NCBI RefSeq assembly: GCF_017873415.1
Contig: NZ_JAGGKD010000015.1
Span: forward strand, 1-49,331
Direction: 5' to 3'
Length of the DNA stretch: 49,331 nucleotides
DNA from: Methanolobus bombayensis
Lineage (GTDB): Archaea > Halobacteriota > Methanosarcinia > Methanosarcinales > Methanosarcinaceae
Shown: in pieces, positions 1,801-18,570 of the stretch
Layout of the letters: every line of letters begins with the position of its first letter
How positions within the stretch are numbered: position 1 is the stretch's first letter
Made by a program: the position numbers and the translations under genes
Notes under the pieces: model-generated
The model's input: the letters and a program-made list of their open reading frames with translations, nothing else
Told to the model about the DNA's origin: nothing
Database searches by the model: none

Positions 1801-2206
1801 GTACATTTTTTTAAAAAATAGGTTTAGAAATATTCGAACATCCAATGTCTGCTATACGAAAGCAACATCATAACCAGCCAGACTACGGACCCTGATAAAT
1901 GTGGAATCATTTATGAATTCGTGTCTGTAAGGCTGTCGTTGCCCGCGTTATGGGTTATTCTTCTTTCTTTTTTTTTAAGAATATTAACCTTATGGTTAAT
2001 GTTTTTATTTCACTTTTATCATTTATTTGAGTTTACGAGTACTGTTAACTTCTAATTCACCAATATATCGAGTATTTATACTGAGCCAATTTTTTATAAG
2101 ATGAAATGATACAATTAATAATTACATATTTATTGCCATTACTAAGCGTTTATATGTCTATATATGAACTTTTTGATTTTCTAGTGAAGTTCAGGGGTGG
2201 GAAAAG
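1801..2206. other. Intergenic region with a probable terminator hairpin
   Basis: No gene was recognised in these 406 bases. A perfect hairpin ATTAACC-ttat-GGTTAAT at 1983-2000 is followed by GTTTTTATTT, and a T-rich tract precedes it at 1960-1978. Together they could terminate the kinase transcript. The rest is AT-rich and should carry the promoter of the ParA-like gene. Confidence 0.45.
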
Positions 2207-2968: not shown

Positions 2969-3082
2969 AATAATCAAGAGTTCCTCAAATATTGCTCAAA
3001 TTAGGAATAGAGCCTAATAAGTGTTCTATAAGAATAGTAGCTAAAAAATATGATGTCGATTCCTCTAATAATTCTAATGATA

Positions 3083-3220
3083 TCAAAAACCTTCTTTTTT
3101 TAGGAAATCATCAACTGCTTTTACTATAATGGGATTTCTTGGTATATTATAAGGGAAAGACTCTATATACATCTCAAGTCGATCTAAAAGTTCGTCCGGA
3201 AGGTCAGTATATATTCGCAT
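3083..3220 (-). CDS. Small ribbon-helix-helix-like DNA-binding protein (45 aa)
   Basis: This is a 45-codon gene read from ATG at 3220 to TGA at 3083. Its start MRIYTDLPDELLDRLE gives a short beta strand followed by an amphipathic helix, and a second helix IIVKAVDDFLKKEGF follows after a PRNP turn. That order is the strand-helix-helix plan of MetJ/Arc/ParG/CopG repressors, which work as dimers. A ribosome-binding site GGTGAT overlaps the last codons of the upstream gene, and the start lies 4 bases after that gene's stop, so the two are co-translated. Two identical palindromes in the shared promoter are the obvious target. It could be an antitoxin, a repressor or a centromere-binding protein. 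The fold is inferred from pattern only. Confidence 0.6.
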   Translation of the reverse strand: MRIYTDLPDELLDRLEMYIESFPYNIPRNPIIVKAVDDFLKKEGF

Positions 3221-3224
3221 ATAA

Positions 3225-3455
3225 TCACCACATTTCCACAAATATTTTTTTCTCCATTTTTGGATCTTCCGATAATGTTATACTTCCATTACTTGTGTAG
3301 TATCTCATGTGACCAAATTTTTTTTCTATATGTAATATTTCGGATAGTCTGATGATTACATCTTCGCTTTGTATTACTAATTCATTATTTGAGATAGAAA
3401 CATATTTCATAAAGTTTGCAGGTGTTTTATTGTATGCTTCGATAATTTTCACCAT
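3225..3455 (-). CDS. Hypothetical 76-aa protein, first gene of the RHH operon
   Basis: I do not recognise this family. The protein is soluble, with no signal peptide or membrane segment, and has alternating beta-strand-like stretches (KYVSISNNELVIQ, VIIRLSEILHIE, RYYTSNGSITL), so a small beta-rich domain is likely. The start ATG at 3455 has a good ribosome-binding site, GGTGAT, directly upstream. The stop sits 4 bases before the start of the ribbon-helix-helix gene. A small two-gene operon of this shape is often a toxin-antitoxin or autoregulated partner pair, but nothing in the sequence shows toxicity. Confidence 0.55.
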   Translation of the reverse strand: MVKIIEAYNKTPANFMKYVSISNNELVIQSEDVIIRLSEILHIEKKFGHMRYYTSNGSITLSEDPKMEKKIFVEMW

Positions 3456-3495
3456 TCAATCACCATATTTGTTCCTTGTATGTGTATCGTGCTAT

Positions 3496-3535
3496 ATAGT
3501 ACTATTTATTACTGCATAGTACTATTATATAAAGA
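3496..3535 (-). promoter_or_regulatory. Tandem palindromic operator over the promoter of the RHH operon
   Basis: The perfect palindrome ATAGTACTAT occurs at 3496-3505 and again at 3516-3525, exactly 20 bp centre to centre (about two helical turns), on the same DNA face. A leftward TATA-like element TTTATATAA (about 3525-3534) abuts the second copy, so the predicted transcription start falls near the first. This is the geometry expected of ribbon-helix-helix autorepression. That the 45-aa protein binds here is inference. Confidence 0.6.
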
Positions 3536-3620
3536 TGCATACTGCTGTTACTATTGAGTTATCAAATAACAGTAGAAATAAATGATTGTGCCATGGGGGA
3601 TAATATAACTTTATTAATTC

Positions 3621-4034
3621 TTATGAATCAAGAAAATCAGTCAGCTTATTATAAATAGAAGTCAGATCTTTTTTCTTTATTTCACATTCCCAGACAATAA
3701 GGATATTCCAGCCATCTGCACGCAGCTGTTCATAACTCTTTGTGTCCCTCAGGACATTCTTACTGATTTTCTGATACCAGAAATCAGAATTGGATTTTGG
3801 CCATTTGAAGTACTCGCAGTCATGTTTATGCCAGAAACAGCCATTTACAAAAATAACTTTCTTTTTTCCCGGAAACACAATATCCGGTTTGCCAGGTAAA
3901 TCTTTTCTGTGAAGTCGGTATCTATATCCATTATTCCAGAGCCATTTACGAACGGTAATCTCAGGTTTGGTGTCTTTCCCTTTTATTTGGGACATATTGT
4001 AACTGCGCTGCTTGCGGGAATGAACATCGGTCAT
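3621..4034 (-). CDS. vsr: Very short patch repair endonuclease Vsr
   Basis: This 137-aa protein is a full-length Vsr. It has the opening MSQIKGKDTKPEITVRKWL, the catalytic PDIVFPGKKKVIFVNGCFW segment with the metal-binding Asp, and the HKHDC zinc/active-site motif, then the WNILIVWECE strand. Vsr nicks 5' of T in T:G mismatches that arise when 5-methylcytosine deaminates, and it normally travels with a C5 cytosine methyltransferase. Such a methyltransferase is two genes upstream in the same direction. The start ATG lies 55 bases after the stop of the GHKL-nuclease gene, so it is probably the last gene of the defence operon. Its role here could be repair of methylation hot-spots or, less likely, participation in restriction. 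Confidence 0.93.
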   Translation of the reverse strand: MTDVHSRKQRSYNMSQIKGKDTKPEITVRKWLWNNGYRYRLHRKDLPGKPDIVFPGKKKVIFVNGCFWHKHDCEYFKWPKSNSDFWYQKISKNVLRDTKSYEQLRADGWNILIVWECEIKKKDLTSIYNKLTDFLDS

Positions 4035-4089
4035 TGGATAATTTCCTTCAAACTGTCATATTACATCCAAAAGTCCAGTAAACATAAAG

Positions 4090-5943
4090 TCATATTCTGT
4101 TATACTGATTATATGCATCAATAAACTCTTTATGGTATTCTTTAGACTGTTCCAACAATTCTGTATACGTTTTGACAAAAACTTCTCCCGACATCCGATA
4201 GGTATTTTCCCTTTTTCTAAAGACTCCGTTTCTTGATTTTTCCCCACCTACAACAAAACAAACAACCTTTGAAAAACCAGTTTCAGATGCATATCTTTCA
4301 GTAAGAAATGCACCATACTCATATGCTTGGTCTAAAGCTTTCAAATCTATAGCATAATTGCTACGCTTAATTTCAATGACATATAGAATGTCACCTAAAG
4401 CATTACTACAGAGGAAATCAATTCTTTTGTTTGGCTCTTCAAGTTCAGCTTCAGGAAATGATTCTTTTAAGAGCTCAGAATAGCGTACTTCATCTTTAAA
4501 TTCCAAAATTCTTGGATCAAGTAACCATGAAAATTTTTTAAAGAAATTGTGAAGGGTGGGTACTTCGTTTGCATCTTCATTTAAATAAGCTTCAAACTGT
4601 TTTATCACTTCAACTCGCGCGTTAGCCAGTCCCCTAATCTCTTTTGATTCAATCGTTTTCCAGTCATCCATCAATTTTAAAAACTTGGGTATATCCTCTG
4701 GTTCAGAAATATCTGCTATCTGGGATGCATATTCTTTAAATGTTTGATTATCAAATTTATCAATTACATTTTCTATAATCTCACTTGATTCAGCAACATC
4801 AATATTTGAATTCAATAATATCGGATTTATAATTCTGATACTTAACTCTCTTTCATAGGAAGGTAATTGTTCTTGCCATTCATCAATATTAATATTTTTT
4901 TCCTCCACTATGCTATCCTTTTTTATCTGTGCCCTCTTATTTTTCCATTCTGTACCAACTCTCCGGATTATTTTTTGGAGGTACTCCTGTAATTTTTTTG
5001 TTGATTCATGTTCCCAGTTCAATGATTGTCTATCAGTTGAAATAACATCTTCATCAAAATCATCTATGAAATCAACCTCTAAGTACCCTGTTACATAACT
5101 ATGGAATTGATCATTATCTCTTGCACCATAGAAATCTGCTGTATTGACAATTTTACCTCTGGAAGTTAAGTAAATACCACGCATTTCAGTATCTTTTACT
5201 GGAGTTTCAAGTGTAAATATGGTGCCCCTTATTCGATCATAATATTCATAGTCACTATCATATTTTGAATCCGGAAATTTCCATTCAAACTGAATATTCA
5301 GACCTTCAAATTTTAAGTCATTTGTAACGCTTATTGTATTTACTCCATTAAAATAAAGGTCAGTAGACATTTCATCAAATATCAAAAATTTTTTAGATAA
5401 ACTGAGAGCTATATTTTCTAGGTTGTAAGGTGATTTCCGCCTTATTTCCTTTAAATGCAACGTTGTTCCTGACATTTCATCTGTAGGAGAATTATGAACA
5501 ATTATTTCAGGATTATAAGAATGAGTTTTGCTTTGTCGAATTTCAGAAAGATCCATTTTAAAATGATTTTTAATTCCCTCTTTCACAGAAATAACTTCAA
5601 TTATATTACAAATTCCAAAAACGGACAATTTCCCCAACCCTTTTTTCCCTATTACTTTTCGACCTTTAGCAGATGTATCACAGGTTGAGTTTCTTCTTCT
5701 GTTTCTACCAATTACCAAATATTTATCCTGAAGTTCCTCATAGGACATCCCTTCTCCATCATCATTAAATATTATTTCCTTTGAGCCATCTTTATCAATA
5801 AAATCAATACTTACATATTCTGAATCTGCATCCCATGAATTGGATACTAGTTCTGACAAAACATTTGGAAGCTTTGAATACAAAGATATTCCTAAATGTT
5901 CAATAGTATTTGGATCAAATTTCAGGATCAAGGTATCTGGCAT
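4090..5943 (-). CDS. MORC/MutL-like GHKL ATPase fused to a DUF4263 (Shedu)-like nuclease domain
   Basis: The N-terminal third of this 617-aa protein is a Bergerat ATP-binding fold: N box with Glu31, Asn35 and Asp38 (ELVSNSWDAD), G1 DDGEGM at 61-66, and G2 GKKGLGK at 99-105. A presumed S5-like domain follows to about 330. The C-terminus holds FFKKFSWLLDPRILEF and then Asp509 ... Glu524-x-Lys526 ... Gln539. This is the D-ExK-Q pattern of PD-(D/E)XK nucleases of the DUF4263/SduA type. Known prokaryotic MORC/paraMORC ATPases occur in restriction systems with helicases and nucleases and are thought to reshape DNA loops in an ATP-driven way. The gene overlaps the methyltransferase stop by one base (TAATG), so it is translationally coupled to it. 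The ATPase call is strong and the nuclease call is good by motif. Confidence 0.82.
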   Translation of the reverse strand: MPDTLILKFDPNTIEHLGISLYSKLPNVLSELVSNSWDADSEYVSIDFIDKDGSKEIIFNDDGEGMSYEELQDKYLVIGRNRRRNSTCDTSAKGRKVIGKKGLGKLSVFGICNIIEVISVKEGIKNHFKMDLSEIRQSKTHSYNPEIIVHNSPTDEMSGTTLHLKEIRRKSPYNLENIALSLSKKFLIFDEMSTDLYFNGVNTISVTNDLKFEGLNIQFEWKFPDSKYDSDYEYYDRIRGTIFTLETPVKDTEMRGIYLTSRGKIVNTADFYGARDNDQFHSYVTGYLEVDFIDDFDEDVISTDRQSLNWEHESTKKLQEYLQKIIRRVGTEWKNKRAQIKKDSIVEEKNINIDEWQEQLPSYERELSIRIINPILLNSNIDVAESSEIIENVIDKFDNQTFKEYASQIADISEPEDIPKFLKLMDDWKTIESKEIRGLANARVEVIKQFEAYLNEDANEVPTLHNFFKKFSWLLDPRILEFKDEVRYSELLKESFPEAELEEPNKRIDFLCSNALGDILYVIEIKRSNYAIDLKALDQAYEYGAFLTERYASETGFSKVVCFVVGGEKSRNGVFRKRENTYRMSGEVFVKTYTELLEQSKEYHKEFIDAYNQYNRI

Positions 5944-7199
5944 TAGTAATTCTCCTTCAGTTTTTCCGCGATTTTCTGAGCCAGCAATACAGGAACTGCA
6001 TTGCCTATTTGCCGGTAAGCTGCTGTACGGCTCGGTTTTTCGGAAATACCTTCAAAAAAGTAATCATCCGGAAATGTTTGTAATCTTGCAGCTTCACGGG
6101 GTGTTAACGATCTGTTTTGCTTAATATCAGGGTGGATGTAATAGTGTCCATCTTTTGCAATATGTGCAACAACTGTATGTGAAGATGACTCCTTACCGGC
6201 TACAACCTTGAATCTGTCAAGGAAAGAAGAACGATTCCTATGTGTCTTCAGATGTGCTGGTAAGTCATTATAATTAAGTCTCTTATTGTCATTCCATTTC
6301 TGGACTGCAATTCGATATATTTCCAGATCACGATCTTTATTCGTTCTGGATTGATGTAAAGTGACTGGAACACCGTCTCTACGGATTCCTGCTTCATAAA
6401 GATAATTGCTATTATGATCTTTTATTTTACAGGGAGTTAGAGTTCCTTCACCTGCTTTCAATGCAGGCAAATCATTAAAAACAGCGTTTACTTTCACATC
6501 AGGGGTCCATTTTTCAGGATAGGGATAGAATCCAGACTCATCGCCTTTTTTTCCCACCAGGATTATTCTTTTTCTTCTTTGAAGCACCCCATAGTCATTG
6601 GCATTCAGAACATCCCATTCAACAGTATAACCTTTTTCGCGGAACAGCTGTTTCATCTTCTCAAAATATGAATCTCCTTCCACTGATTTAGCAGAGAGCA
6701 ATCCTTGGACATTTTCGAATACAAAATATTTAGGTGAATACTTTTCCAGAAACTTAGCGTAATATTCGTAAAGATAATTTCTGCTGTCCCCTTGCATTTT
6801 GTTTTCAGCTCTGGATCTGCCTACAATAGAATAAGCCTGACATGGAGGACCACCAACTATCAAATCCAAGGGTTCACCATCAAGTATTGAATCAACCTGA
6901 TCAAATATCGATGGTAATGTATCATCAGATATCTCTTCATTAATTACAGAATCAAGCAGTGATTCAGGAACTAACGCATAGAGCTCAGATCTCGAAATAT
7001 TACCCTTCAAGTAATCATAATAAACATCCATTTTTCCATTATTATTGAGCCAATGGTATGCCATCCTCGTTTTTAGCGAATAACATGCTGCAGTATCGAC
7101 TTCAACATGTGCCACAGGAACAAAACCAGATTTAATGAAGCCTTCGGACAAACCACCTGCTCCTGCGAAAAGATCGAGAAATCTGTATTTTTTTTCCAT
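5943..7199 (-). CDS. DNA (cytosine-5) methyltransferase, DrmMII-type
   Basis: This 418-aa enzyme has all key C5-methyltransferase motifs: I DLFAGAGGLS (9-18) for AdoMet, IV GGPPCQAYS with catalytic Cys120, VI ENV (162-164), VIII QRRKRIILVG, IX LTPREAARLQTFP, and X IGNAVPVLLAQ. It transfers methyl to cytosine C5 at an unknown site. In class 2 DISARM this is DrmMII, the self-marking enzyme. Context agrees: it lies directly after the drm core genes, is coupled by TAATG to the GHKL-nuclease gene, and vsr is close by. A separate leftward TATA-like box 53 bp upstream may let it be made independently of the restriction genes. Target specificity cannot be read from the sequence. Confidence 0.93.
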   Translation of the reverse strand: MEKKYRFLDLFAGAGGLSEGFIKSGFVPVAHVEVDTAACYSLKTRMAYHWLNNNGKMDVYYDYLKGNISRSELYALVPESLLDSVINEEISDDTLPSIFDQVDSILDGEPLDLIVGGPPCQAYSIVGRSRAENKMQGDSRNYLYEYYAKFLEKYSPKYFVFENVQGLLSAKSVEGDSYFEKMKQLFREKGYTVEWDVLNANDYGVLQRRKRIILVGKKGDESGFYPYPEKWTPDVKVNAVFNDLPALKAGEGTLTPCKIKDHNSNYLYEAGIRRDGVPVTLHQSRTNKDRDLEIYRIAVQKWNDNKRLNYNDLPAHLKTHRNRSSFLDRFKVVAGKESSSHTVVAHIAKDGHYYIHPDIKQNRSLTPREAARLQTFPDDYFFEGISEKPSRTAAYRQIGNAVPVLLAQKIAEKLKENY

Positions 7200-7327
7200 T
7201 TACATCCCTGGATATATAATATTGTGGGTATAATTGGTATATGGAGAAAGGAAATATAAAGGCATCCCATACGCATGATTTTGATAGTTTATCATTTTAT
7301 GTAGAAAGCATCACTTAATTCAATTGT
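7200..7327 (-). promoter_or_regulatory. Probable internal promoter before the methyltransferase gene
   Basis: This is the only gap over 60 bp in an otherwise overlapping operon. On the minus strand, CTTTATATTT (TATA-like, plus-strand 7252-7261) lies about 53 bases before the ATG, and AGGGATG precedes the start as a possible ribosome-binding site. Separate expression of the protective methyltransferase is a common need in restriction systems. The promoter call rests on the motif and the spacing only. Confidence 0.4.
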
Positions 7328-10300
7328 TTATTTACTAATATAATCAGTATATTCATCAAATATTTTTAGCCCTTCTACATCACAGGATACTTTTATCATA
7401 TGAGCATTACTAACTCTGAATAGTTCCGCATTTCTCACAATCTGCATGAGTTCCCTCTCAAGTCTGGAATAAATACTATAGTACTTTACATCAACATTTT
7501 TATCTTTTCTTTTTAATGCGTTTCTGCGAAGGTTTTGAAGTGTAATAGCAGCAGCATAGGATCGATCTGCAATTTGCAAATCATTTACAAGTTTCGGACA
7601 TAGACTTTTTACAACCGAAAAAATAATTCTCATATCATTTGGAGTAAAAGGATGTTCTATTTTGTACAAATTATATGTTTCACAATCAAGAGTTAGCTCT
7701 TCATAGTTAGTCCACCAACCTATAATATAATCAGGATTTACAGCTGTAATTTCTGATTCTGCAAGTTTTTTTGCAACATGATTCCGTGATTGATGTAAAG
7801 TAACATGATTAATTTTGGCATATTCATTAACTGCTCTTTCAAGAAGTGTATTCCAGTAAATTGAATCATTATATAGGTTCTTGAAACCATACCATTCAAA
7901 AGGTCCCCTCTGAAAATGTAATTTGTCACCAAGTTTAATCATAAAACGGAAAAAAATAGATTTGAAAGATATATAAAGTCCAGACTTGCCCAGTACTATT
8001 TCATTATCAATGAGAGTTTTTTTCAGTTTGTTTATTGAAAAAGTATCATCTACTATGAATTCCTGTAATGTCTCATTAGTTCTTATCAATATATTACTAT
8101 TCAATGGAAGAAATAATCCTCTGTTTTGTGCATCTGTACAGAGTATTGCAGCCTCCCCAGTATTAATCTTTAAATGAGTTGTGAAATCATCTGAAGTTCC
8201 TGCTATTCTTTCAGAAGATACTGTTTCAGAATATGGCATTATAAATTTTGCATCTTCTATCAAACTTTCAGTAACCCTTGTAAATTGTTCTTTGTCAGGA
8301 ATGTCCACTAGATTGAACAATTCATGCAATAAATCAGGACAGTAGACATCTGCATCTGGTTTAATAAGAGGGTAGGCATTAATTTCAAGGAGCCTTTTTT
8401 CTATAATGTACTTTATATTACCAATCGTTTTTTCGTTTCCAATAAAGACTAACCTGTCAGCATTGGATAAATTCAGACGGTAGTTCAAACTAGGATAGCA
8501 AGTTGAAATGATACAATGCTTATATCCATCTGGTACATTATTTTCATGTGCTTTTAAATTGTTCCAATCACAAAAAGATATGTATGTAAATAATGAATCT
8601 TCTGTAGACTCTGCTTTCTTGAAAAGGAGCTCTGTTCCTTTTACTTCATAGGAAAGAACGACTACTGTAAAATACCAATCTTCTGCAGATTCAAGAATGG
8701 TTTTAGTAAATGATAATATTTTGTCTCTAAGAGGATTTGTTTGTTCAAGAGAATTTAGTTGAAAAATCTCATTTAAAGTTGAGTTAATTGACTGAAATGC
8801 GTTTTGATCAACCAGCATATAAAGCCTGCTCATGACATTTTCATAGGTAAGATAGTTGTCACCTTTCCTTTTTACCATTAAAATTTCTGAATCACTATAG
8901 TCGCCTTGTAAATTCAAAGGTGTAGAGAATAATCTGTTAAAATAAAAAATCAAATCATTTCGATGATCAATGCTCAAATTTAATAGATATTTATCTATAT
9001 TTTCTGTTGCTGAGTTATAGGAATCCAAAATCAGATATTCAGGATTTATCCTTTCCATATTTTCGCAAATTATCTGGTTAGTACCTGATGATACTGGATT
9101 AGGATATTTAGACTCATTTCCTGCAGGCAAGTTATTAAGAATATGTTGAGAATCCCATGTATGGACAATTACATCAATATCTTGGAAAATTGTTTCATCA
9201 TCATGTATTTTGTAAAATTGGCGCATATCAGGATCAGTTGAAAACATAATAATTGTTTTAACTGAATGATTATGCAGGAAATTAAGTAGCACTTTACTTC
9301 TTTCTCCTCCAAATCGGGAGTCAGAAATAATTTCATCCATGTTTTCAATTATAAGAATATCCGGAGATAATTCCTCTACTAAATCTAATGTTTTATCAAG
9401 ATAAGGTTCAGATGGCAAAAAATTAAGTCTGATATTTCTATGTGAGGAACTATTGTAATTATCGTCAGCAATTTCTCTATAGAAATGGGATCGAACTAAT
9501 GATTTACAGGCAAATAAATTCGTTGAGTTAAAAAGAACTTCCCATAACCATAACTTGTTATATTGAAGAGAACCAGTCCATCGTTCCTGTTCATAAAGAG
9601 AAACATCCCATGCACCTTTTTCGTTAATTGTTTCCACAACAGGATCACGTCCTAGTTTGTGTTCAGAGATATTTCTTAAAAGGCTGTCTCCAAACTCACT
9701 ATCTTCATTCAGAATTTTGTTTTTACATTTTCGCAATGTATGGTAGCACAGTCGAGAAGGAATTAGGTCATTTGAACCTATGTTTCGGTATTTGATTTCA
9801 ACCACTTTTTCTTTCTCAAAAACAAGTTTATCGCTGAATTTCCTAATTTCTCTTCTAACATCACGATCTATTTCTTCAATATCCTTCAAAAAAGAGAGAT
9901 TGTTGAACACTAAAGGAGATGAAGGAAACAATTCTACTTCCGTATTATCATCACATGTGTAGTTTCCTATTACAACTGCTTTTTTATCAGGATTTGTTAG
10001 TAAATATTCAAAAACCATTAACGGAAGAAAGCGTACATCACGCCATGGCCATGTTATAAAGTAAAAACCTTTTTTTTCAGTCGAGAAAAAATCAATATAT
10101 TCCTGTTCGATAATATTTGGTTCTATTTTCCATAGTAAAGGAAGATTGGAAAGATAATTTGCCGCATTTTCTCCTTCCTTACTTATAACATGGTTAATTG
10201 TTTTAGGAAACAGGTCAGATGATTGGACATCAATATATTTATGGAATTTTGCACCACATGAAATGCACCTAAAGGTTTTTTCATTAATAGTTTCAATTGC

Positions 10301-10366
10301 CTGCCCACTTACATGAGGCTCATGACAGTCGGGACAGGTAATCCCATGATAGTAATATGACCTCAT
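7328..10366 (-). CDS. 1012-aa Zn-ribbon protein in the drmE position of a DISARM locus
   Basis: The protein begins with a zinc ribbon (Cys11, Cys14, Cys34, Cys37). A region follows that looks like a decayed helicase/NTPase: a strand-helix-strand around WRDVRFLPLMVFEYLL and KKAVVIGNY, then a Walker B-like DILIIENMDEI and a sensor-like TIIMFSTDP. I see no P-loop. The long C-terminus has no motif I can name. Class 2 DISARM carries drmE, a protein of unknown function, beside drmA/B/C. This gene fills that slot, but it is longer than the roughly 800 aa I recall for DrmE, and I cannot confirm homology by eye. The start ATG overlaps the drmC stop as ATGA, so the two are coupled. It may be a structural or DNA-binding subunit of the complex. 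Confidence 0.6.
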   Translation of the reverse strand: MRSYYYHGITCPDCHEPHVSGQAIETINEKTFRCISCGAKFHKYIDVQSSDLFPKTINHVISKEGENAANYLSNLPLLWKIEPNIIEQEYIDFFSTEKKGFYFITWPWRDVRFLPLMVFEYLLTNPDKKAVVIGNYTCDDNTEVELFPSSPLVFNNLSFLKDIEEIDRDVRREIRKFSDKLVFEKEKVVEIKYRNIGSNDLIPSRLCYHTLRKCKNKILNEDSEFGDSLLRNISEHKLGRDPVVETINEKGAWDVSLYEQERWTGSLQYNKLWLWEVLFNSTNLFACKSLVRSHFYREIADDNYNSSSHRNIRLNFLPSEPYLDKTLDLVEELSPDILIIENMDEIISDSRFGGERSKVLLNFLHNHSVKTIIMFSTDPDMRQFYKIHDDETIFQDIDVIVHTWDSQHILNNLPAGNESKYPNPVSSGTNQIICENMERINPEYLILDSYNSATENIDKYLLNLSIDHRNDLIFYFNRLFSTPLNLQGDYSDSEILMVKRKGDNYLTYENVMSRLYMLVDQNAFQSINSTLNEIFQLNSLEQTNPLRDKILSFTKTILESAEDWYFTVVVLSYEVKGTELLFKKAESTEDSLFTYISFCDWNNLKAHENNVPDGYKHCIISTCYPSLNYRLNLSNADRLVFIGNEKTIGNIKYIIEKRLLEINAYPLIKPDADVYCPDLLHELFNLVDIPDKEQFTRVTESLIEDAKFIMPYSETVSSERIAGTSDDFTTHLKINTGEAAILCTDAQNRGLFLPLNSNILIRTNETLQEFIVDDTFSINKLKKTLIDNEIVLGKSGLYISFKSIFFRFMIKLGDKLHFQRGPFEWYGFKNLYNDSIYWNTLLERAVNEYAKINHVTLHQSRNHVAKKLAESEITAVNPDYIIGWWTNYEELTLDCETYNLYKIEHPFTPNDMRIIFSVVKSLCPKLVNDLQIADRSYAAAITLQNLRRNALKRKDKNVDVKYYSIYSRLERELMQIVRNAELFRVSNAHMIKVSCDVEGLKIFDEYTDYISK

Positions 10367-10830
10367 TTTGATTTTAACCTCTTTATAAGTGTTAGAATTT
10401 TCATTGCAATATCAGGGTCACTAACAAGAAAACCAAGTTCATAATTTTTGGTCATTCCGCTAAGTGTAAAATTTGCTGAACCGGAAATAACTTTTACTCC
10501 GTCAGCAACCAGAACCTTTGCATGAAGCATATCGTTTTGTATCTTATATATGTGTAGATACTCATACTCATCCTGTAAACGAATTATTGTCTGGACTTTG
10601 TCGTTCTCCTTTTCTATTCCTTCTGCATACAAATAAATCTCAACACTGATGCCTCTTTCGAGTGCTTTCTGAAGATCGTTGACAATGTCAGAACTTGTTA
10701 AAACATAAACAGTCATAACCAGTTCATTTGATGCTGTAGAAATTAGCTCACGAATAACTGACTTAAATGATCTGACACCTGAGCCAACCCATTTTTCTCC
10801 TGTAGCCACTGGAACAATTTCTGCTTTCAT
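10363..10830 (-). CDS. drmC: DISARM protein DrmC (phospholipase D-fold)
   Basis: This protein of about 155 aa has a single HKD motif: HAKVLVAD (H-x-K-x4-D), followed by GSANFT. That is the signature of PLD-fold nucleases and phosphodiesterases, which need two copies and therefore usually dimerise. It is the small PLD member of DISARM; a nuclease role is assumed, not shown. I place the start at ATG 10830, two bases after the drmB stop. An upstream in-frame TTG at 10842 would overlap drmB but has no ribosome-binding site. The 3' end overlaps the next gene as ATGA. The family call is clear from motif plus neighbours. Confidence 0.85.
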   Translation of the reverse strand: MKAEIVPVATGEKWVGSGVRSFKSVIRELISTASNELVMTVYVLTSSDIVNDLQKALERGISVEIYLYAEGIEKENDKVQTIIRLQDEYEYLHIYKIQNDMLHAKVLVADGVKVISGSANFTLSGMTKNYELGFLVSDPDIAMKILTLIKRLKSK

Positions 10831-10831
10831 A

Positions 10832-12619
10832 TCAGTTACCAATTACAATATGACGATCAAGCCAGAGATTTCTGTGTTCACAAGATGTCTCTGAAATAAG
10901 AAGACAACTGTAACAAGCTGAACCATTAATACTTTCTGAAGATTTATCTACATCAATGCATAGAGGATCATTTGAACATATCAAAAGATTATCAATAGCA
11001 CCGTTGATTATGTCTGAAAAGGAATCTACGGTTCCTGCAAGACCTCCCATTCCACTATCATCTCCGGGAGATGTATTGTATATTAGAATACCACCATTTG
11101 ATCCATCACGGGATATGTAAACGCGCTCCCTCAATGAAGCTGCGGAATAACCCGTGTAAGCAGACAATGACAGAATAATTGCATGAGACAGAGTATGAAG
11201 CCATACAAATCCAGGTTCAAATGTCACATCAGACCAATTGCTTTTTTGCTCATAGCCGGAATTCTTATACATTTTCCATTTGGAAAATGCAGACTTAGAA
11301 CTGATATCAGGCAGTTTTCCATTTTTAAATGTAATGAAAATGCCTTCTCCAAAACCTTCATAACCCGGATGCCAGATCTCATTAGGTGGTAAAAATTCAC
11401 CTGAATATACTATTCCAGGATCTTGGTTTTCATTAAGATTGACCAACCTAGTATAGCCTAATTGTACTGTGACAGTTCTGATTTTGTTCACTGCAGAAAC
11501 CTGCAATTCAGGTACGTGGGGTAAAGTTGGTATGATTGTTTTTGAGTGAGACATCGAAAAGTTTTCGGTTACTGTCCCACCAGCTGAAAGAAGTGATTCA
11601 AACTCTTCATACATTAAATCCATGAAAGTCTGATCTTCTGCGTTAAGACGACGATAAAGAGTTAAGAACTCCGAAACTCCACATCTTTTTATTTCATTTG
11701 TCAGAATCATAATAACTTCATCACTTATTCGACGTTGTAGCAATTTAGAGAGCGTATCAATAAAATCTGAAATACCCAATTGTTCCAAATCTGCAGATAT
11801 CAGAATCATATCAAGTGCCATTGATACTTCATTTTTCTGAAGAATTCGAGAGATAGTATTGTCAAATTCCGGAATCGTAAGAAGCGTCATCGTTTCAGAA
11901 ACACGCAATGATGTTGATTGTCTCTGTATTATTTTCATCTTGTGTTCGCAGTTCTTTGGTCTGTTTGGACTGGTATAATACGGAGAGTGTTTTGAAGCTG
12001 GTCTTTCTTTTTCTGGATTTCTGCCTGTACAGAAAAATTGCAGAGAATAGATTTCCTTCATCGTTTTCTTGGAATTACATTGTGGACATTCTACAATAAT
12101 ATCTGAAAGAGAACTACCATTAGCTTTCCAATAATAATAGGGTGGATTACACTTGTTTTTCCCATGCACCGCATATTGCCAGTTAACTTCATCCAAGTGT
12201 CCTTCTGAGCATGCCGAAACAAATCTTGTTGCTGATGATTCTTCATCTGTTTTACACAGAGGACATTTAGGACCATTGTATAACAAAGGCCTATGGTTTG
12301 CCTTTCTTCCATAACAAACTTTCCAGGCAGGGAACACATATGTAGAATATATTCTTGAATTGCTTGGTATCTTAAGACCTGCATTTGTAGGTAGTGCCAC
12401 AATTCTATGACATTTATCGGATGACTGTTGGATAATTCTGGACAGTCGTGTTTCAGCAATTTCAAAGCTTTCAAAAACATCTTTGCTGAAATATTTGGCA
12501 TCAAGACCATATTGCATTATTGGAATTATTCGTGGTCCATTTTTTGTCTCAATTATTGCCCCCGGGCCATAAGTCAGCACGAATTGAGACCTGCTGATAT
12601 GCTGGAAATCTTTTCTCAT
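10832..12619 (-). CDS. drmB: DISARM protein DrmB (DUF1998)
   Basis: This 595-aa protein carries zinc-finger cysteines (CPLC, CSEGHLDEV, CPQC, CTGRNP) and the C-terminal DUF1998 block VYISRDGSNGGILIYN, DDSGMGGLAG and ACYSCLL...SCEHRNLWLDR. DUF1998 proteins pair with the DrmA helicase; in studied DISARM systems DrmA and DrmB form a complex that engages DNA with free 5' ends. The start is best placed at ATG 12619. The motif GAGGTG (12630-12625) lies five bases before it, over the drmA stop, whereas the GTG at 12625 sits inside that motif. Overlap with drmA implies coupled translation. I am confident of the family. Confidence 0.9.
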   Translation of the reverse strand: MRKDFQHISRSQFVLTYGPGAIIETKNGPRIIPIMQYGLDAKYFSKDVFESFEIAETRLSRIIQQSSDKCHRIVALPTNAGLKIPSNSRIYSTYVFPAWKVCYGRKANHRPLLYNGPKCPLCKTDEESSATRFVSACSEGHLDEVNWQYAVHGKNKCNPPYYYWKANGSSLSDIIVECPQCNSKKTMKEIYSLQFFCTGRNPEKERPASKHSPYYTSPNRPKNCEHKMKIIQRQSTSLRVSETMTLLTIPEFDNTISRILQKNEVSMALDMILISADLEQLGISDFIDTLSKLLQRRISDEVIMILTNEIKRCGVSEFLTLYRRLNAEDQTFMDLMYEEFESLLSAGGTVTENFSMSHSKTIIPTLPHVPELQVSAVNKIRTVTVQLGYTRLVNLNENQDPGIVYSGEFLPPNEIWHPGYEGFGEGIFITFKNGKLPDISSKSAFSKWKMYKNSGYEQKSNWSDVTFEPGFVWLHTLSHAIILSLSAYTGYSAASLRERVYISRDGSNGGILIYNTSPGDDSGMGGLAGTVDSFSDIINGAIDNLLICSNDPLCIDVDKSSESINGSACYSCLLISETSCEHRNLWLDRHIVIGN

Positions 12620-12621
12620 AT

Positions 12622-15600
12622 TCACACCTCAAACGATGTTGTTTCCTCAATCTCCCTCAATGATTGTGGTGCATTCTTGTACACTTTCTTAAGATGTTCT
12701 ATTCTTTCATGAGCAGGATCACTCAAAACAACATTTTTCTCTGGTTTCTGATAGGGTCTATACTCATTATACACCAAATCTTGTCCTTCACTACCAAGCT
12801 TTTTGGATATATTTTCCCATTTTTCAAACTCGGATTTAAAATATTCAATAATCTTATCTCTTTCTTCTGGTTGCAGACGGTCATCCAGACAGCACATGAT
12901 AAATTCTTCGAAATCTTTAACAGCATTTGAATTTCTTATAGCATCGCCTGATTCTAAAGACCATTCCACAATAGATTCAGACATATTTCTTAAGAAAGAG
13001 ACTATTGCAGGCCCTGCAGCTTTCGCCATACATCCATCTGCAAACGGCGAAACTGAAGCCGGTTCTACTTCCAGATTTACCCTGTGATGGTATCCTCCAA
13101 AGATTTCATAATGACTTAAATCTCTTGGACGACCTGCTTTGTAGAATGTAACAGCAAGTGCTCCATGTTCTCTTCCCACTCTTCCTGTAGCCTGAATATA
13201 CTGTGATGTTGTTTTTGGCTGTCCATTAACAACCATTAATGAAAGATGTGGAATATCCACACCTGTTCCGAACATTGATGTTGTGAAAATTGCATCCGGA
13301 TTTTCATTCACATTCTGGTTTTGTCCTCCGTTTTCAAGTTCTTCCAGTATCTGCGGGATATCAGTTGAATCAATCCTACTTGACAACTCAACAGCCTTAT
13401 CATCATCAGTACTTCGTAGAGGTACATTTTCAGATATATGAGCAAGCCGTTCTATTATGTCTTCTCTGTAAAGTGCCCGGTTTCCTCCAAGCTCTCTCAG
13501 AGAGTTAAAATACCCTACAAGTGTCCAGTAGTTTATTATCTCTCTTTTTGAAAGATTATCATGTCCGGTTTTAAGTAATCTTGACCATATTCTTACAAGG
13601 GGGGTTAAAGGTCCCATACCGGGTGCGTATATTCCCATGTAAACTCTTCCGGGTCGGTTTTCATCCCATCCATAAGAGAACTCCGGCAGAGTTACAAAAA
13701 AACTGTCTTTAAAAGAAAGACCATATGCAGGGAATTGAAACAATGGTCTATTAAATAAAGACATAACTTGTTTTTCTGCCTGATTAACTGTTGCAGAAGA
13801 AGCTATATATTTTGGTTTACCGCCTGCTTTGCGAATAAGACCGTCAACAACTGATTCATATAAACCAAACATACTTCCCAGCGGTCCATCCATTAGATGC
13901 AATTCATCCTGCACAATCAATTCAGGAGGTCCAAACGATTTTATTTCGACGCAATATTTGTTATTTGTAGCAGACTTGAGAATATCTTTTGGGAAAATAT
14001 CCTTACGATTATAACCATAAAAAAGATTGTAATTTGTTATATTTCCAAACAGTGATGCAGCTCTGGGTTCAAAGGCAAGCCGTGCAATTTTGTCTGCAGT
14101 ACTGACAACAACTGTCGGACATCGGGAATATATCTGTTCATCAACTGTGTATGCAGGAATAGGAATACGTGATTCTGGTAAAAAAGGAGTTTTCCTCTTT
14201 TTCAAAAAGAGACCATCAGGTAACTGCTCATCTTCTGTAGTTAATAATGTAAATGGTACCCCTTCTTTATGATTTACTCCATTATTTAAATCACATTCAG
14301 GATTAGTACAGAATATTTCAAAATCAATTGGTTGTTCTTTTTTTCTTCCAGGCTCAGAATCTATAGGGAAATATCCAGGTCTTGATGCTCGGAATGATTT
14401 AACCTCTATATCAAGACTTTTTTCCATTTCACACACAAGTTCATCAATCTCATTTTCATCAATTTTACGTGTACTATCAACAGTTAGTGAAAGTGTATAG
14501 TATCCTGGCAGAAGCCCTCCCTGCGAAAAATTTACAGTTATAATAGGGTCTTTTAATTTAATTGTAGCATTCTGCAGGTCACTAATAGTTCTTTTGGATT
14601 TTACAATTAAATGAAGTTTATTTGTCCCTACAGGCAAACCAGACCGTGGAATTGCAAGCCATTCACCACATACAGGACACTTGACAACTTGTGCAGGTTC
14701 CCCATCAACATCACCCTTTGTTAAGGCAGTTACTGCACCATAATCTCCCCGTAGATGATTAGGTGATACACTACCTCCAACCCACATTCCAACTGAAAAT
14801 ATTGTAGAACCATACAACCAGTTCTCTGAAAATGAACATTTTTCCGGCCTCCAACCAATAGCTCCATTATTATTGAAGATACGTAAATACTCTGCCGCTG
14901 TCACCATTAGTAGTGTACGACGGAATTGCTGTACTGTTAATAAACGAAGAGTATAACGTGTAATTACAGCAGTTCCTGCACCTGTAATATCATTTATATT
15001 TTTATCATTATCTTTTGCATTTATACGTCTCAGAGCAATTACAAATGCCATCATTGCAAGATAAGATTCTGTTTTACCTCCTCCGGTAGGAACCCATAGT
15101 AGATCAAGATGATTTCTATATTCTGAGTTCTGTGAATAGAGAGATTCAATATTAATCAGGAAAAATGCAAGCTGAAAAGGTCTCCATCTAAAGTCAACAT
15201 CGTCATCACTGTATTTTCTTCTCTTTTTCCAGAGATTTTGAAGCCAAATTGTTTTGTTTGCAAAGCAGAATGATAAAAGAGCATTTTTATTGTTCTTAAG
15301 ACACTTAATCCCGGACTTCAGACGAATTAATGATAATTTTTGTTTGTCAACTAATTTTTGAACAAATACAGCACTTTTTTCATCATACTTGCCAATAGAA
15401 CTTTCATTCTTTTGAATCCATAAGCTGTAAGCTTCTACAAGAGGAGATAGATATGCATCAATATCTTTACTTTCCCACATTTCAGACAACTTGAGAGCAG
15501 ATAATTCAGGACTAACATCAAAAGTTGATTCATCCCATGTAAAGTTAGGTGCAGAGTTTGGATATAACGGTATAAATTCACTTCTTACAGCACAATTGTG

Positions 15601-16431
15601 GAATACAGCACAATCATCGAAAAAGTATCCATCAGGCCATAATTTCTCAATCTCAAACTGTTCTTGGTAATCAATTGCTTTCCATATTGCAGAACACATA
15701 TGGCCTCGGGAAAGTATGGGATTCTCTCGATATATAAAAGCCAAAATATCATCTTCATTCGAATTCTCCATTGATTTCAGACTACATCCTTCTCCGAGAT
15801 TTACACGTAAAGACGGCTGGTAAATTGAAGCTTGAACAATTGCATCCCCTGTGCATTCTTTAATTTTTAAATCATTAATAAGACTTAAAACTACATGCAA
15901 GGTTCCATTTGACTGAATTTTCTTGATATTTAGATGTATTTGTCCGTCTTCTTCATCATAAACAGTTTCGTTACCTTCAGCAGCACTCGACAAATTAATA
16001 TTCAGTATCTTCATGAAAGGTTTTCGTTTCCATTTATCAGCTTTGTGTATACTACTATCATTGGATGCGCTATCTTCAGAAATACTTACATCTTTGTATC
16101 TCCCCCAAGTTACGCAAACATCAATTACAGGATTTTGCCCCTTAATCAAAAAAGATATTCCAAAAGATTTGGGTTTCATTCGGGGGTCAAGTTCAGTTGG
16201 AAGTATAGATATTGGATCATCTGATGAATTGTCATCTTCTGATTCTGAGCATGCTTCCTCGGAAGAAATCATTTCCGATTCCGGAGATGTCTCTACTTTT
16301 TTGCAGTTTTTTGGAATAATGACTCCTGTTAAGTATTCGTTATATGGACTTGCACCAATAAGTACTTCTTCAGGACCATACCTTGGACCCAGAACCTCTT
16401 TCATTAATTCTTCTATGAAAATATCCCTCAC
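12622..16431 (-). CDS. drmA: DISARM helicase DrmA (SF2)
   Basis: This is a 1269-aa SF2 helicase. Walker A TGGGKT is at 449-454, motif II QDELH at 841-845 (the DEAH-box variant typical of DrmA), motif III SSAT at 878-881, and motifs V/VI GTGVDI and QATGRVGR at 1055-1087. A zinc ribbon (CPVC, about 585; CTNPEC, about 708) is inserted between the motifs. Residues 44-73 form a dense Ser/Asp/Glu stretch that looks disordered. The start is GTG 16431 with a strong ribosome-binding site GAGGTGA four bases upstream. It is the first gene of the leftward operon and overlaps drmB by GTGTGA. It should unwind or translocate on invading DNA together with DrmB. Confidence 0.93.
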   Translation of the reverse strand: MRDIFIEELMKEVLGPRYGPEEVLIGASPYNEYLTGVIIPKNCKKVETSPESEMISSEEACSESEDDNSSDDPISILPTELDPRMKPKSFGISFLIKGQNPVIDVCVTWGRYKDVSISEDSASNDSSIHKADKWKRKPFMKILNINLSSAAEGNETVYDEEDGQIHLNIKKIQSNGTLHVVLSLINDLKIKECTGDAIVQASIYQPSLRVNLGEGCSLKSMENSNEDDILAFIYRENPILSRGHMCSAIWKAIDYQEQFEIEKLWPDGYFFDDCAVFHNCAVRSEFIPLYPNSAPNFTWDESTFDVSPELSALKLSEMWESKDIDAYLSPLVEAYSLWIQKNESSIGKYDEKSAVFVQKLVDKQKLSLIRLKSGIKCLKNNKNALLSFCFANKTIWLQNLWKKRRKYSDDDVDFRWRPFQLAFFLINIESLYSQNSEYRNHLDLLWVPTGGGKTESYLAMMAFVIALRRINAKDNDKNINDITGAGTAVITRYTLRLLTVQQFRRTLLMVTAAEYLRIFNNNGAIGWRPEKCSFSENWLYGSTIFSVGMWVGGSVSPNHLRGDYGAVTALTKGDVDGEPAQVVKCPVCGEWLAIPRSGLPVGTNKLHLIVKSKRTISDLQNATIKLKDPIITVNFSQGGLLPGYYTLSLTVDSTRKIDENEIDELVCEMEKSLDIEVKSFRASRPGYFPIDSEPGRKKEQPIDFEIFCTNPECDLNNGVNHKEGVPFTLLTTEDEQLPDGLFLKKRKTPFLPESRIPIPAYTVDEQIYSRCPTVVVSTADKIARLAFEPRAASLFGNITNYNLFYGYNRKDIFPKDILKSATNNKYCVEIKSFGPPELIVQDELHLMDGPLGSMFGLYESVVDGLIRKAGGKPKYIASSATVNQAEKQVMSLFNRPLFQFPAYGLSFKDSFFVTLPEFSYGWDENRPGRVYMGIYAPGMGPLTPLVRIWSRLLKTGHDNLSKREIINYWTLVGYFNSLRELGGNRALYREDIIERLAHISENVPLRSTDDDKAVELSSRIDSTDIPQILEELENGGQNQNVNENPDAIFTTSMFGTGVDIPHLSLMVVNGQPKTTSQYIQATGRVGREHGALAVTFYKAGRPRDLSHYEIFGGYHHRVNLEVEPASVSPFADGCMAKAAGPAIVSFLRNMSESIVEWSLESGDAIRNSNAVKDFEEFIMCCLDDRLQPEERDKIIEYFKSEFEKWENISKKLGSEGQDLVYNEYRPYQKPEKNVVLSDPAHERIEHLKKVYKNAPQSLREIEETTSFEV

Positions 16432-16500
16432 TTACTCACCTCTAAATTACCAATAATAATATGAAATTAAAAATGAAGTTAATACATATAAAATATTTAT
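16432..16500 (-). promoter_or_regulatory. Promoter and ribosome-binding site of the DISARM operon
   Basis: On the minus strand TTTTATATG (plus-strand 16485-16493) is a TATA-like box about 54 bases before the GTG start. GAGGTGA at 16443-16437 is a near-perfect ribosome-binding site. I did not find a clear operator here. Confidence 0.4.
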
Positions 16501-16824
16501 TATTTAATCATGCTTAAAACATTATAATTGATATATAAGAAATTTTTGAGTAGTAGGAGAGTTACATGATATAATAATCAAATATATTTGGAAAATAAAT
16601 CACAGTACTTTAGATGAAAATTAGATATGCAGAATCCTCAATACTTGATTCATTATTTAAATATATAATTATTTAAAGTAATAATATAATAGATGATAAT
16701 TACCAATACCATTCAAAAGATGTTGATTTTAATAGGTATTCTACAAAGTTCATATTAGTCTATTAATAAGTGATAATATCAATCTGGCAAAATTATTTAA
16801 CAAGAATTACTTATAATAAGAACC
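16501..16824 (+). promoter_or_regulatory. AT-rich divergent promoter region of the deaminase fusion gene
   Basis: This stretch between divergent genes is extremely AT-rich and holds no gene I can support. AATTATTTAA at 16791-16800 lies 25-34 bases before the ATG at 16825, and no ribosome-binding site precedes that ATG. A leaderless transcript is therefore likely. Confidence 0.4.
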
Positions 16825-18318
16825 ATGGTCTCTGAGAAAAAAACAAAGTTCGATCCACGTAAAATGATGGAGTTAGCGGTTAGTGTCATGGAAAATACAA
16901 TTCATGAACCTCGAATTGATGGGAAAAAGAGTCCATTAGTTGGTGCAGTTTTAGTAAAACCAAATGGAGAAAAAAATACAGCTTGCCGGGGAGAATTGCG
17001 AGAAGGTGACCATGCCGAATATACTCTTATTGAGCGAAAGAATAGGAGCGAGAAGTTAGATGGATCAGTTCTGTTTGCAACTCTTGAACCATGTGCTCCA
17101 GGGGCAAGAAACCATCCAAAATTAAGTTGTGCTGAAAGGATAGTCAATGCTCGAATAAAAGAAGTGTGGATAGGAATCGAAGATCCGGATCCAACAGTAA
17201 ATCATAAAGGAATGAAGTATCTACAGAATCATGGTGTTACGGTTAAAATGTTTGATCGTGATCTCCAAGAGAAAATTCTTGAAATAAATAATGATTTCAT
17301 TTTACAAGCAGAAGAGAGAGCTAAAGAGAAACAAGTAAACGAGGATATTGATTCATCTATTTCGAAGTTGGATTTGCCTTTATCTGTACCTTTGTCTAAA
17401 TTGTCAAAAAGTGCATTGGAAATATATAAAAAAGCAATTGGATTTAAAAGTGACGTGGAGTCTCCTGCATTTTACAAGGAACTTGTTGAAATGGGTATTT
17501 TGGAAGAGAAAGAGGATGGTGCGTTTAATCCTACTGGGTTTGGATTACTTTTATTTGGAGAGGATCCTCGAAAGACATATTCACAGGCAGGGTTATTAGG
17601 AACAATCCATTATCCAAGTGGAAAAGAGGGAACTGAAGATTTTAATGACCCATTAGTTTTGATTCCTGGTAAAGTTGAAGAATGGATGAAAAACAAGTTA
17701 CCCAATGTTATTGATCGGAGTAGTATGGAAAGACAACAGCAGAATTTTCCATTTGAACTTATCAGAGAAGCTGTAGTAAATGCACTAGTTCATCGAGACT
17801 ATGATATTGATGGAGCTAAATGTCATTTAATTATCACTCCAAATACAATAGTAATTAAAAGTCCAGGGGGACCAGTAGCACCAATTACTCTTGATCAACT
17901 TAAAGAATTCAAAGCTCCAATGTTAAGTCGTAATCCTAAGTTACATTATGTGTTCTCTCAAATGGCTTTGGCTGAAGAAAGAGGATTGGGAATGAAATCA
18001 TTTGAGACAATGCCTGCAGAATATAACTTACCAAGTCCTCAGTATTCATATGATGACTTATATCTTACATTAACGATCTATTTGAATAGTGAAGAGATTA
18101 TTAGAGGATACGCTCCTGAATTAGTAAATGAATTGTCTGCTGAAGAGTTGAAGAGATGGGACTTTATTGCTAAGAAAAGAATAGTCACATCAAATGATTG
18201 TACAAAAGCATTCAATATAACTTCAAGAGCAACACAAAGACAATTGAATAGATTCATTGAAATTGGATTATTAGAAAAGATTGGCAAGGGACCAGCAACA
18301 AGGTACAAGGTAAAATAA
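16825..18318 (+). CDS. RibD-like zinc deaminase fused to a HATPase_c_4 domain and winged helix
   Basis: The protein is 497 aa. Residues 10-150 are a cytidine-deaminase-fold domain: His63-Ala-Glu65 and EPC90 with Cys102, followed by IKEVWIGIEDPDPTVNHKGMKYL, all very like the deaminase half of RibD. Residues about 225-420 match the RecG-like/HATPase_c_4 family (COG2865): FELIREAVVNALVHRDYDIDG (Glu315, Asn319, His323-Arg-Asp-Tyr), KSPGGP, RNPKL, and the EERGLGM glycine loop. The C-terminus, about 435-497, is a predicted winged helix (RATQRQLNRFIEIGLLEKIG). No reductase domain is present, so it is not a riboflavin enzyme. The deaminated substrate is unknown. It is transcribed away from the DISARM operon and looks leaderless. 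The domain calls are good; a defence or nucleotide-sensing role is inference. Confidence 0.8.
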   Translation: MVSEKKTKFDPRKMMELAVSVMENTIHEPRIDGKKSPLVGAVLVKPNGEKNTACRGELREGDHAEYTLIERKNRSEKLDGSVLFATLEPCAPGARNHPKLSCAERIVNARIKEVWIGIEDPDPTVNHKGMKYLQNHGVTVKMFDRDLQEKILEINNDFILQAEERAKEKQVNEDIDSSISKLDLPLSVPLSKLSKSALEIYKKAIGFKSDVESPAFYKELVEMGILEEKEDGAFNPTGFGLLLFGEDPRKTYSQAGLLGTIHYPSGKEGTEDFNDPLVLIPGKVEEWMKNKLPNVIDRSSMERQQQNFPFELIREAVVNALVHRDYDIDGAKCHLIITPNTIVIKSPGGPVAPITLDQLKEFKAPMLSRNPKLHYVFSQMALAEERGLGMKSFETMPAEYNLPSPQYSYDDLYLTLTIYLNSEEIIRGYAPELVNELSAEELKRWDFIAKKRIVTSNDCTKAFNITSRATQRQLNRFIEIGLLEKIGKGPATRYKVK

Positions 18319-18340
18319 ATATATTGATAACTATTAGAGT

Positions 18341-18570
18341 TCACGCCGGCATTCCTAATTAAATTTTAATAACAGTACTATATCCCGGCGTAAATACCGA
18401 CACCAAACCAGTATTTCTCATTAAATTTTAATGATAGTACTATATCCCGGCGTAAATACCGGCACCACGCCGGTATTTCTCATTAAATTTTAATAACAGT
18501 ACTATATCCCGGCGTAAATACCGACACCACGCCGGTATTTCTCATTAAATTTTAGTGACAGTACAATATA
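18341..18570. repeat. Tandem array of 62-bp repeats with internal hairpins
   Basis: Unit starts (ATTAAATTTT) are at 18358, 18420, 18482 and 18544, exactly 62 bp apart. There are three full units, a partial fourth and a partial leading unit. Each has an AT-rich half, an AGTACTATAT box, and a GC-rich dyad. In unit 2 the dyad is AAATACCGG (18454-18462), loop CACCACG, CCGGTATTT (18470-18478); an alternative pairing CCGGCGT with ACGCCGG is also possible. Unit 2 contains ATAGTACTAT (18434-18443), identical to the operator palindromes at 3496 and 3516. No gene is visible in 18319-18791. Confidence 0.85.

What the first reader, a model, noticed from the sequence alone, without database searches (positions are those of the whole stretch)
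3621..16431. DISARM-like operon extended by a MORC/Shedu-type fusion and Vsr
Seven co-directional, mostly overlapping genes combine the DISARM core (drmA, drmB, drmC, a C5 methyltransferase, a large unknown in the drmE slot) with a GHKL-nuclease fusion and vsr. Established knowledge: class 2 DISARM is drmMII-drmE-drmA-drmB-drmC, and prokaryotic MORC ATPases occur in restriction systems. Inference: the last two genes are working parts, because the GHKL gene is coupled to the methyltransferase by TAATG. This may be a distinct archaeal subtype with a dedicated effector.
Basis: partly seen in the sequence, partly recalled or inferred. Interest (0 to 1): 0.75.

Follow-up and report, generated by a model that had tools for sequence, protein, structure and literature searches.

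The report
Archaeal DISARM variant with swappable effector
A methane-producing archaeon carries a DISARM-type virus-defence operon in which the enzyme that marks the cell's own DNA, together with a gene that repairs the mutations this mark causes, forms a hub shared with a second, interchangeable DNA-cutting system, so that different defences appear to read one self-mark.

Summary
The seven genes are real, intact and at the stated coordinates in a Methanolobus-type genome. drmA, drmB and drmC are DISARM genes; the fifth is a C5-methyltransferase and the last is Vsr. Three labels need correction. (1) The 1012-aa gene is not a recognisable DrmE. It is an unassigned fourth core gene ("X"), present in all ten loci of this DrmA type that could be read through; it looks like a degenerate SF2 helicase with a zinc ribbon. 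(2) The GHKL-nuclease is a full-length homologue of BbrUII/HgiDII-type restriction enzymes (paraMORC3-like), not Shedu. (3) It is optional, not DISARM-dedicated: present in 1 of 10 such loci, absent in a sister locus that keeps MTase+Vsr, and replaced gene-for-gene in Methanolobus vulcani by a GHKL-kinase/receiver pair. The same alternatives occur on MZA systems and without any core. Vsr is a working partner of the methyltransferase: all ten loci carry a T:G-mismatch repair gene, Vsr in three and a Mig.MthI-like glycosylase in seven. At one fixed Methanosarcinaceae locus the MTase+glycosylase pair is followed by DISARM in some species and MZA in others. Best reading: a shared self-marking and mutation-guard hub serving exchangeable defence cores and GHKL effectors.

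The parts
12622..16431 (-). drmA, SF2 (YprA-like) helicase, 1269 aa, GTG start; Walker A PTGGGKT and QDELH motif present
   Evidence: PDB DrmA 7s9v E 6e-111
10832..12625 (-). drmB, DUF1998/MZB protein, 597 aa
10363..10842 (-). drmC, single PLD domain (HAKVLVAD motif), 159 aa
7328..10366 (-). X, 1012 aa, fourth core gene; N-terminal zinc ribbon (C11, C14, C34, C37) and SF2-like motif II/III (LIIENMDEI...FSTD) but no Walker A; not DrmE
   Evidence: present in all 10 loci, 31-95% identity; no family match; no Walker A; weak Foldseek matches to FANCM/Hef/RIG-I
7200..7327 (-). 128-bp AT-rich gap upstream of the MTase, possible separate promoter
   Evidence: in G399 the MTase-vsr pair is divergent from drmA
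5943..7199 (-). C5-cytosine DNA methyltransferase, 418 aa (DrmMII-type by PADLOC)
   Evidence: tree
4090..5943 (-). GHKL ATPase fused to a PD-(D/E)xK-type nuclease (N-box E31/N35, D61-G63-G65, G99-K101-G102-G104; D509...E524-I-K526), BbrUII/HgiDII-type (paraMORC3-like) restriction enzyme homologue, 617 aa; the exchangeable module
   Evidence: swapped or absent in sister loci
3621..4034 (-). vsr, T:G mismatch (very short patch repair) endonuclease, 137 aa
   Evidence: PDB 1cw0 E 4e-31

Best explanation
The locus is a DISARM-type restriction system joined to a type II-like GHKL restriction module, both using one C5-methyltransferase. The MTase methylates a host motif. DrmA-DrmB, with DrmC and X, loads on incoming DNA that lacks the mark and blocks or degrades it. 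The GHKL-nuclease uses ATP to clamp or translocate on DNA and cuts when the same motif is unmethylated. Vsr nicks T:G mismatches made when the methylated cytosines deaminate, so it protects the host from the cost of the mark. MTase plus T:G repair gene is the stable hub; the defence core (DISARM or MZA) and the GHKL plug-in (nuclease or kinase/receiver pair) are exchanged around it. Shown here: gene identities, the swaps, co-inheritance of MTase with its repair gene, and conserved catalytic motifs. Inferred: the enzymatic activities, the shared motif and any cooperation between the parts.
For: Between the window and M. vulcani, DNA identity of 96.6% stops at the last MTase codon (W5948) and resumes at vsr codon 3 (W4028); in between, the GHKL-nuclease is replaced by a 706-aa GHKL-kinase gene plus a 478-aa receiver-like gene. 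G399 keeps drmABC-X plus MTase (70%) and vsr (66%) with no GHKL gene. The ~225-aa neighbour of the MTase in the other seven loci is HhH-GPD, best PDB hit Mig.MthI T:G glycosylase 1KEA, E 4e-45. MTase-Mig also precedes mzaBCDE, alone (G445, G232, G320), with GHKL-nuclease (G429, 44%) or with kinase/receiver (G491). Beside one M1-peptidase gene, MTase-Mig is followed by drmABC-X in G370/G490/G499/G148 and by mzaBCDE in G491/G320/G232, DNA homology ending at Mig. On the MTase tree the repair gene tracks the MTase (2 changes, shuffled mean 5.9, fraction 0.0005); the plug-in does not (9 vs 9.07, 0.64); the core only weakly (9 vs 11.0, 0.10). Monophyly of DISARM-X MTases is rejected, p-AU 2e-5. Stand-alone MTase-GHKL in Acinetobacter with the same TAATG junction.
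Against: No activity, methylation motif or expression was measured. That the GHKL-nuclease and this MTase share a motif is inferred from pairing. The MTase tree has 33 hand-collected rows, and contexts were called by BLAST over about 20 kb. A GHKL gene next to DISARM could be a neutral hitch-hiker of the MTase. DrmC is dispensable in tested DISARM (PMC9142583), and X has no known activity.
Confidence: 0.62

Rival explanations
1. One reading: the GHKL-nuclease is a dedicated effector of a distinct seven-gene archaeal DISARM subtype, working in one complex with DrmABC.
For: Co-directional operon; TAATG coupling; a paraMORC-type ATPase commonly sits with SF2 helicases and Vsr (PMC2292703); a Deinococcus plasmid also has DISARM next to vsr, MTase and a GHKL-nuclease.
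Against: 1 of 10 sister loci; the same TAATG pair exists without drm genes; a close homologue (44%) sits on MZA; it is replaced precisely in M. vulcani.
Confidence: 0.12
2. Two unrelated defence systems are merely adjacent in a defence island: DISARM with its own MTase, and a GHKL-Vsr remnant without an active partner.
For: Defence islands accumulate systems; two integrases and a NACHT-HEAT gene lie nearby; the gene flanks differ between window and M. vulcani outside this block.
Against: There is a single C5-MTase gene of the PF00145 family in the genome, so an R-M nuclease without it would be lethal or inert; the GHKL catalytic motifs are intact; the same MTase-GHKL pairing recurs in other phyla.
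Confidence: 0.16
3. The GHKL modules (nuclease or kinase/receiver pair) regulate or license the MTase/DISARM rather than cut DNA.
For: The replacement pair in M. vulcani has kinase-like and receiver-like architecture; such pairs with C5-MTase and vsr are described as two-component-like elements (PMC8011034).
Against: The window's version has an intact D-ExK motif and full-length similarity to named restriction enzymes.
Confidence: 0.1

Closest known systems
DISARM class 2 (drmMII-drmE-drmA-drmB-drmC)
   Same: DrmA, DrmB, DrmC and a C5-MTase, similar gene sizes and order of A-B-C
   Different: No DrmE; a different fourth core gene X lies after drmC; the MTase is downstream and comes with vsr and a GHKL-nuclease; relatives have a Mig-like glycosylase upstream
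BbrUII/HgiDII-type restriction-modification (GHKL restriction enzyme plus C5-MTase; NCBIfam NF050001)
   Same: GHKL ATPase plus C-terminal nuclease over the full length, paired with a C5-MTase, 1-bp TAATG overlap as in the Acinetobacter pair
   Different: Scores 308 bits, below the curated cut-off of 550, so specificity cannot be transferred; sits inside a DISARM operon
paraMORC3 of R-M systems (Iyer et al. 2008, PMC2292703)
   Same: GHKL-S5 with C-terminal RE-fold nuclease, near SF2 helicases, C5-methylases and Vsr; gene displacement by other GHKL families was already noted
   Different: That paper does not describe DISARM (unknown then) nor, in the parts read, T:G glycosylase/Vsr alternation
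HK-like/RR-like elements with C5-MTase and Vsr (Bellieny-Rabelo et al. 2021, PMC8011034)
   Same: Architecture of the module replacing the GHKL gene in M. vulcani (HATPase_c_3 plus HATPase_c, then receiver-like gene, then vsr)
   Different: No match to HEF_HK or Response_reg_2 at E 0.1; described in bacteria and not with DISARM (the term DISARM does not occur in that paper)
MZA (mzaBCDE)
   Same: Uses the same MTase-Mig pair and the same two GHKL plug-ins in related archaea
   Different: No MZA Z1 gene in the window's genome

Membership tests
DISARM (core) | DrmA helicase, DrmB DUF1998 protein, with a DNA methyltransferase | tested here: met
   DrmA and DrmB above curated cut-offs; DrmMII-type MTase
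DISARM (core) | DrmC PLD protein | tested here: met
   PADLOC DrmC E 5e-60; NF038319 97 bits is below its cut-off of 133
DISARM class 2 | drmE | tested here: not met
   no match to NF038316 DrmE_fam at E<=10 in seven genomes; X vs L. plantarum drmE-slot protein, hhalign probability 0.1%
DISARM class 1 | drmD SNF2-like helicase and adenine MTase (DrmMI) | tested here: not met
   no such gene in the operon
DISARM | restriction of unmethylated incoming DNA | not testable with these tools
   needs an assay
BbrUII/HgiDII restriction enzymes | curated equivalog score of 550 bits | tested here: not met
   308 bits over residues 7-615: full-length homologue, not an equivalog
BbrUII/HgiDII restriction enzymes | GHKL ATPase motifs plus D-ExK nuclease, next to a C5-MTase | tested here: met
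   motifs; MTase overlaps by 1 bp
paraMORC3 | GHKL plus S5 plus C-terminal E-D-ExK endonuclease | tested here: inconclusive
   GHKL and D-ExK seen; S5 fold and the first E not tested
MORC proper | GhXhhpXXRhl motif of the S5 domain | not tested
   -
Shedu | DUF4263 (SduA) nuclease domain | tested here: not met
   no Pfam DUF4263 match at E 0.1; only HSDR_N_2 at 0.022
Vsr | Vsr family above cut-off | tested here: met
   TIGR00632 154 bits vs 98; PF03852 113 vs 27
Mig-type T:G glycosylase (sister loci) | HhH-GPD/EndoIII fold closest to Mig.MthI | tested here: met
   activity not testable

The most novel reading that the evidence does not exclude
C5-methyltransferase plus a T:G-mismatch repair enzyme is a general 'self-mark hub' in archaea: one mark is read at once by interchangeable helicase cores (DISARM-X, MZA) and by interchangeable GHKL effectors, so that whole immune systems can be swapped at a locus without re-methylating the genome. 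X is the defining subunit of a new DISARM class.
Probability: 0.4. Interest if true: 0.78.

Novelty: new variant of a known kind. Interest (0 to 1): 0.6.

Why it matters
It explains why vsr and GHKL genes turn up beside DISARM and MZA. It suggests that what is conserved is the methyl mark and its mutation guard, not the killing machinery. If right, a defence system can be replaced at a locus at no self-damage cost because the mark stays. That gives a directly testable rule for how restriction systems combine, and it names a conserved DISARM subunit (X) that the profile libraries searched here do not recognise.

Tried and rejected
X as DrmE: rejected by NF038316 at E<=10, PADLOC, NCBIfam and Pfam and hhalign (weak test, only one reference sequence from the drmE slot). 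X by structure: two AlphaFold models were poor (mean pLDDT 62 and 59, pTM 0.34 and 0.35). Foldseek gives only weak SF2-helicase matches (FANCM E 8e-4, Hef 5e-3, RIG-I), used as a hint only. X in plasmids and viral contigs: none. X against PDB sequences: none. Shedu: no match. PADLOC's DrmMII label as evidence for DISARM: rejected, since the same model scores 520 bits on the stand-alone Acinetobacter MTase. Bacterial whole genomes could not be searched with the whole-genome tool, which needs a genome handle as centre, so bacterial sampling rests mainly on plasmids.
Full report
Observation. The seven genes are present, intact and co-directional at 16431-3621. Family matches: DrmA (NF038326, 1728 bits, cut-off 999), DrmB (NF038324, 467 vs 240), DrmC (PADLOC E 5e-60), a C5-MTase (PF00145; PADLOC DrmMII 589 bits), a GHKL protein (NF050001 BbrUII/HgiDII family, 308 bits over residues 7-615, cut-off 550), and Vsr (TIGR00632, 154 vs 98). 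The 1012-aa gene matched nothing. Four of six junctions overlap; gaps of 128 and 55 bp precede the MTase and vsr. The genome is Methanolobus-type: the only match in the named genome collection is Methanolobus vulcani B1d at 95% for X.

The 1012-aa gene (X). A search of 393 genomes of the phylum with DrmA and of two narrower sets with X gave ten loci with X: the window, M. vulcani (G153), G399, G370, G490, G499, G148 (split over two contigs), G279, G155 and G229. Each has a full-length DrmA of the window's type (53-98% identity), with X always at the end of drmA-drmB-(drmC)-X. An eleventh, more distant DrmA (G322, 41%) runs into a contig end after drmC and could not be judged. X is therefore a core gene of this DISARM type. 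It is not DrmE by any profile tried. Conserved features are a zinc ribbon (C11, C14, C34, C37), an SF2-like motif II/III region and no Walker A. Structure models are poor; their weak best matches are SF2 helicases (FANCM, Hef, RIG-I). I read X, with reservation, as a degenerate SF2-helicase subunit.

The GHKL gene is optional. In M. vulcani the block is 96.6% identical over 13.3 kb up to the last MTase codon and again from vsr codon 3, but between them the GHKL-nuclease is replaced by a 706-aa GHKL-kinase-like and a 478-aa receiver-like gene. G399 has drmABC-X with a divergent MTase (70%) and vsr (66%) and no GHKL gene. The other seven have none. Outside DISARM, an Acinetobacter plasmid carries MTase (60%) and GHKL-nuclease (54%) as a bare pair with the same TAATG junction. 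G429 has a 44% homologue at the end of an MTase-Mig-mzaBCDE operon, and G491 has the kinase/receiver pair in that position. G457 has MTase (71%)-kinase-receiver-vsr with no drm genes. Among the seven genomes of the 393 with long GHKL-nuclease matches, only the window has it beside drm genes. A Deinococcus plasmid has class 1 DISARM next to vsr, MTase and a GHKL-nuclease, so the association does recur, but not as one dedicated operon.

Vsr is not a passenger. In the seven other DISARM-X loci the gene after the MTase is an HhH-GPD protein whose best solved relative is Mig.MthI, the T:G mismatch glycosylase (1KEA, E 4e-45). By established knowledge, Vsr and Mig both repair T:G mismatches from deaminated 5-methylcytosine. 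So all ten loci pair the MTase with a T:G repair gene: three Vsr, seven Mig. On an MTase tree of 33 rows, restricted to the 24 close ones, repair-gene type changes only twice (shuffled mean 5.9, fraction 0.0005). Plug-in type changes as often as under shuffling (9 vs 9.07), and core type slightly less than shuffled (9 vs 11.0, fraction 0.10). Trees holding the DISARM-X MTases or the MZA MTases as one clade are rejected (p-AU 2e-5 and 3e-5). The rows were gathered by hand, so these numbers are indicative.

Same locus, different core. In related Methanosarcinaceae the MTase-Mig pair sits beside an M1-peptidase gene. It is followed by drmABC-X in G370, G490, G499 and G148, and by mzaBCDE in G491, G320 and G232; DNA homology between the two kinds ends at the end of Mig. 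This is the strongest evidence that MTase plus repair gene is the resident unit and the core is the exchanged part.

Mechanism. The MTase marks the host. DrmA-DrmB, solved in Serratia and stimulated by unmethylated DNA (PMC9142583), would act on unmarked DNA with DrmC and X. The GHKL-nuclease has intact ATPase and D509...E524-I-K526 motifs and would cut unmarked sites of the same MTase, as in BbrUII-type systems. Vsr limits mutation at the mark. Activities, the shared motif and cooperation are inferred.

Prior art. Iyer et al. 2008 (PMC2292703) described MORC/paraMORC ATPases, including paraMORC3 with a C-terminal nuclease, near SF2 helicases, C5-methylases and Vsr, and noted displacement among GHKL families. 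Bellieny-Rabelo et al. 2021 (PMC8011034) described kinase/receiver-like pairs with C5-MTase and Vsr. Bell et al. 2025 (PMC12458937) report many uncharacterised DISARM-like classes. A text search of that paper for GHKL and MORC found none, and I found no paper describing X or the MTase-plus-T:G-repair alternation around DISARM and MZA; the library is partial.

Verdict.

Noticed in passing
window 21270-25490 (-): DUF4062-NACHT-HEAT protein (1406 aa), a STAND-type defence candidate; its HEAT part is encoded by long ~102/309-bp tandem DNA repeats (21304-22924), suggesting rapid repeat-number change.
   Followed up: partly
window 19344-20579 (-) and 25972-27192 (-): Two tyrosine recombinases (archaeal phage-integrase type) flank the NACHT gene. 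M. vulcani has a different recombinase at the same border, so the DISARM block may lie in an integrated element.
   Followed up: partly
window 16825-18318 (+): Divergent neighbour of drmA: a fusion of a RibD-like deaminase domain and a RecG-C-type HATPase_c_4 region, close to 100% identical in protein to M. vulcani while drmA is 98%, hinting at strong conservation or recent transfer.
   Followed up: no
window 18342-18569: 3.7 copies of a 62-bp tandem repeat between that gene and a peptidyl-tRNA-hydrolase-like gene; also repeated in M. vulcani L003 1797-2024.
   Followed up: no
L104 (G429) 9020-18999: MTase-Mig-mzaB-C-D-E-GHKL-nuclease operon, the MZA counterpart of the window's arrangement (mzaB appears split into two frames there).
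   Followed up: partly
L041 (G101) 906-11807: Haloarchaeal DISARM-like locus with MTase, vsr and a MzaB-like GHKL gene next to distant drmA/drmB, again mixing DISARM and MZA parts.
   Followed up: no
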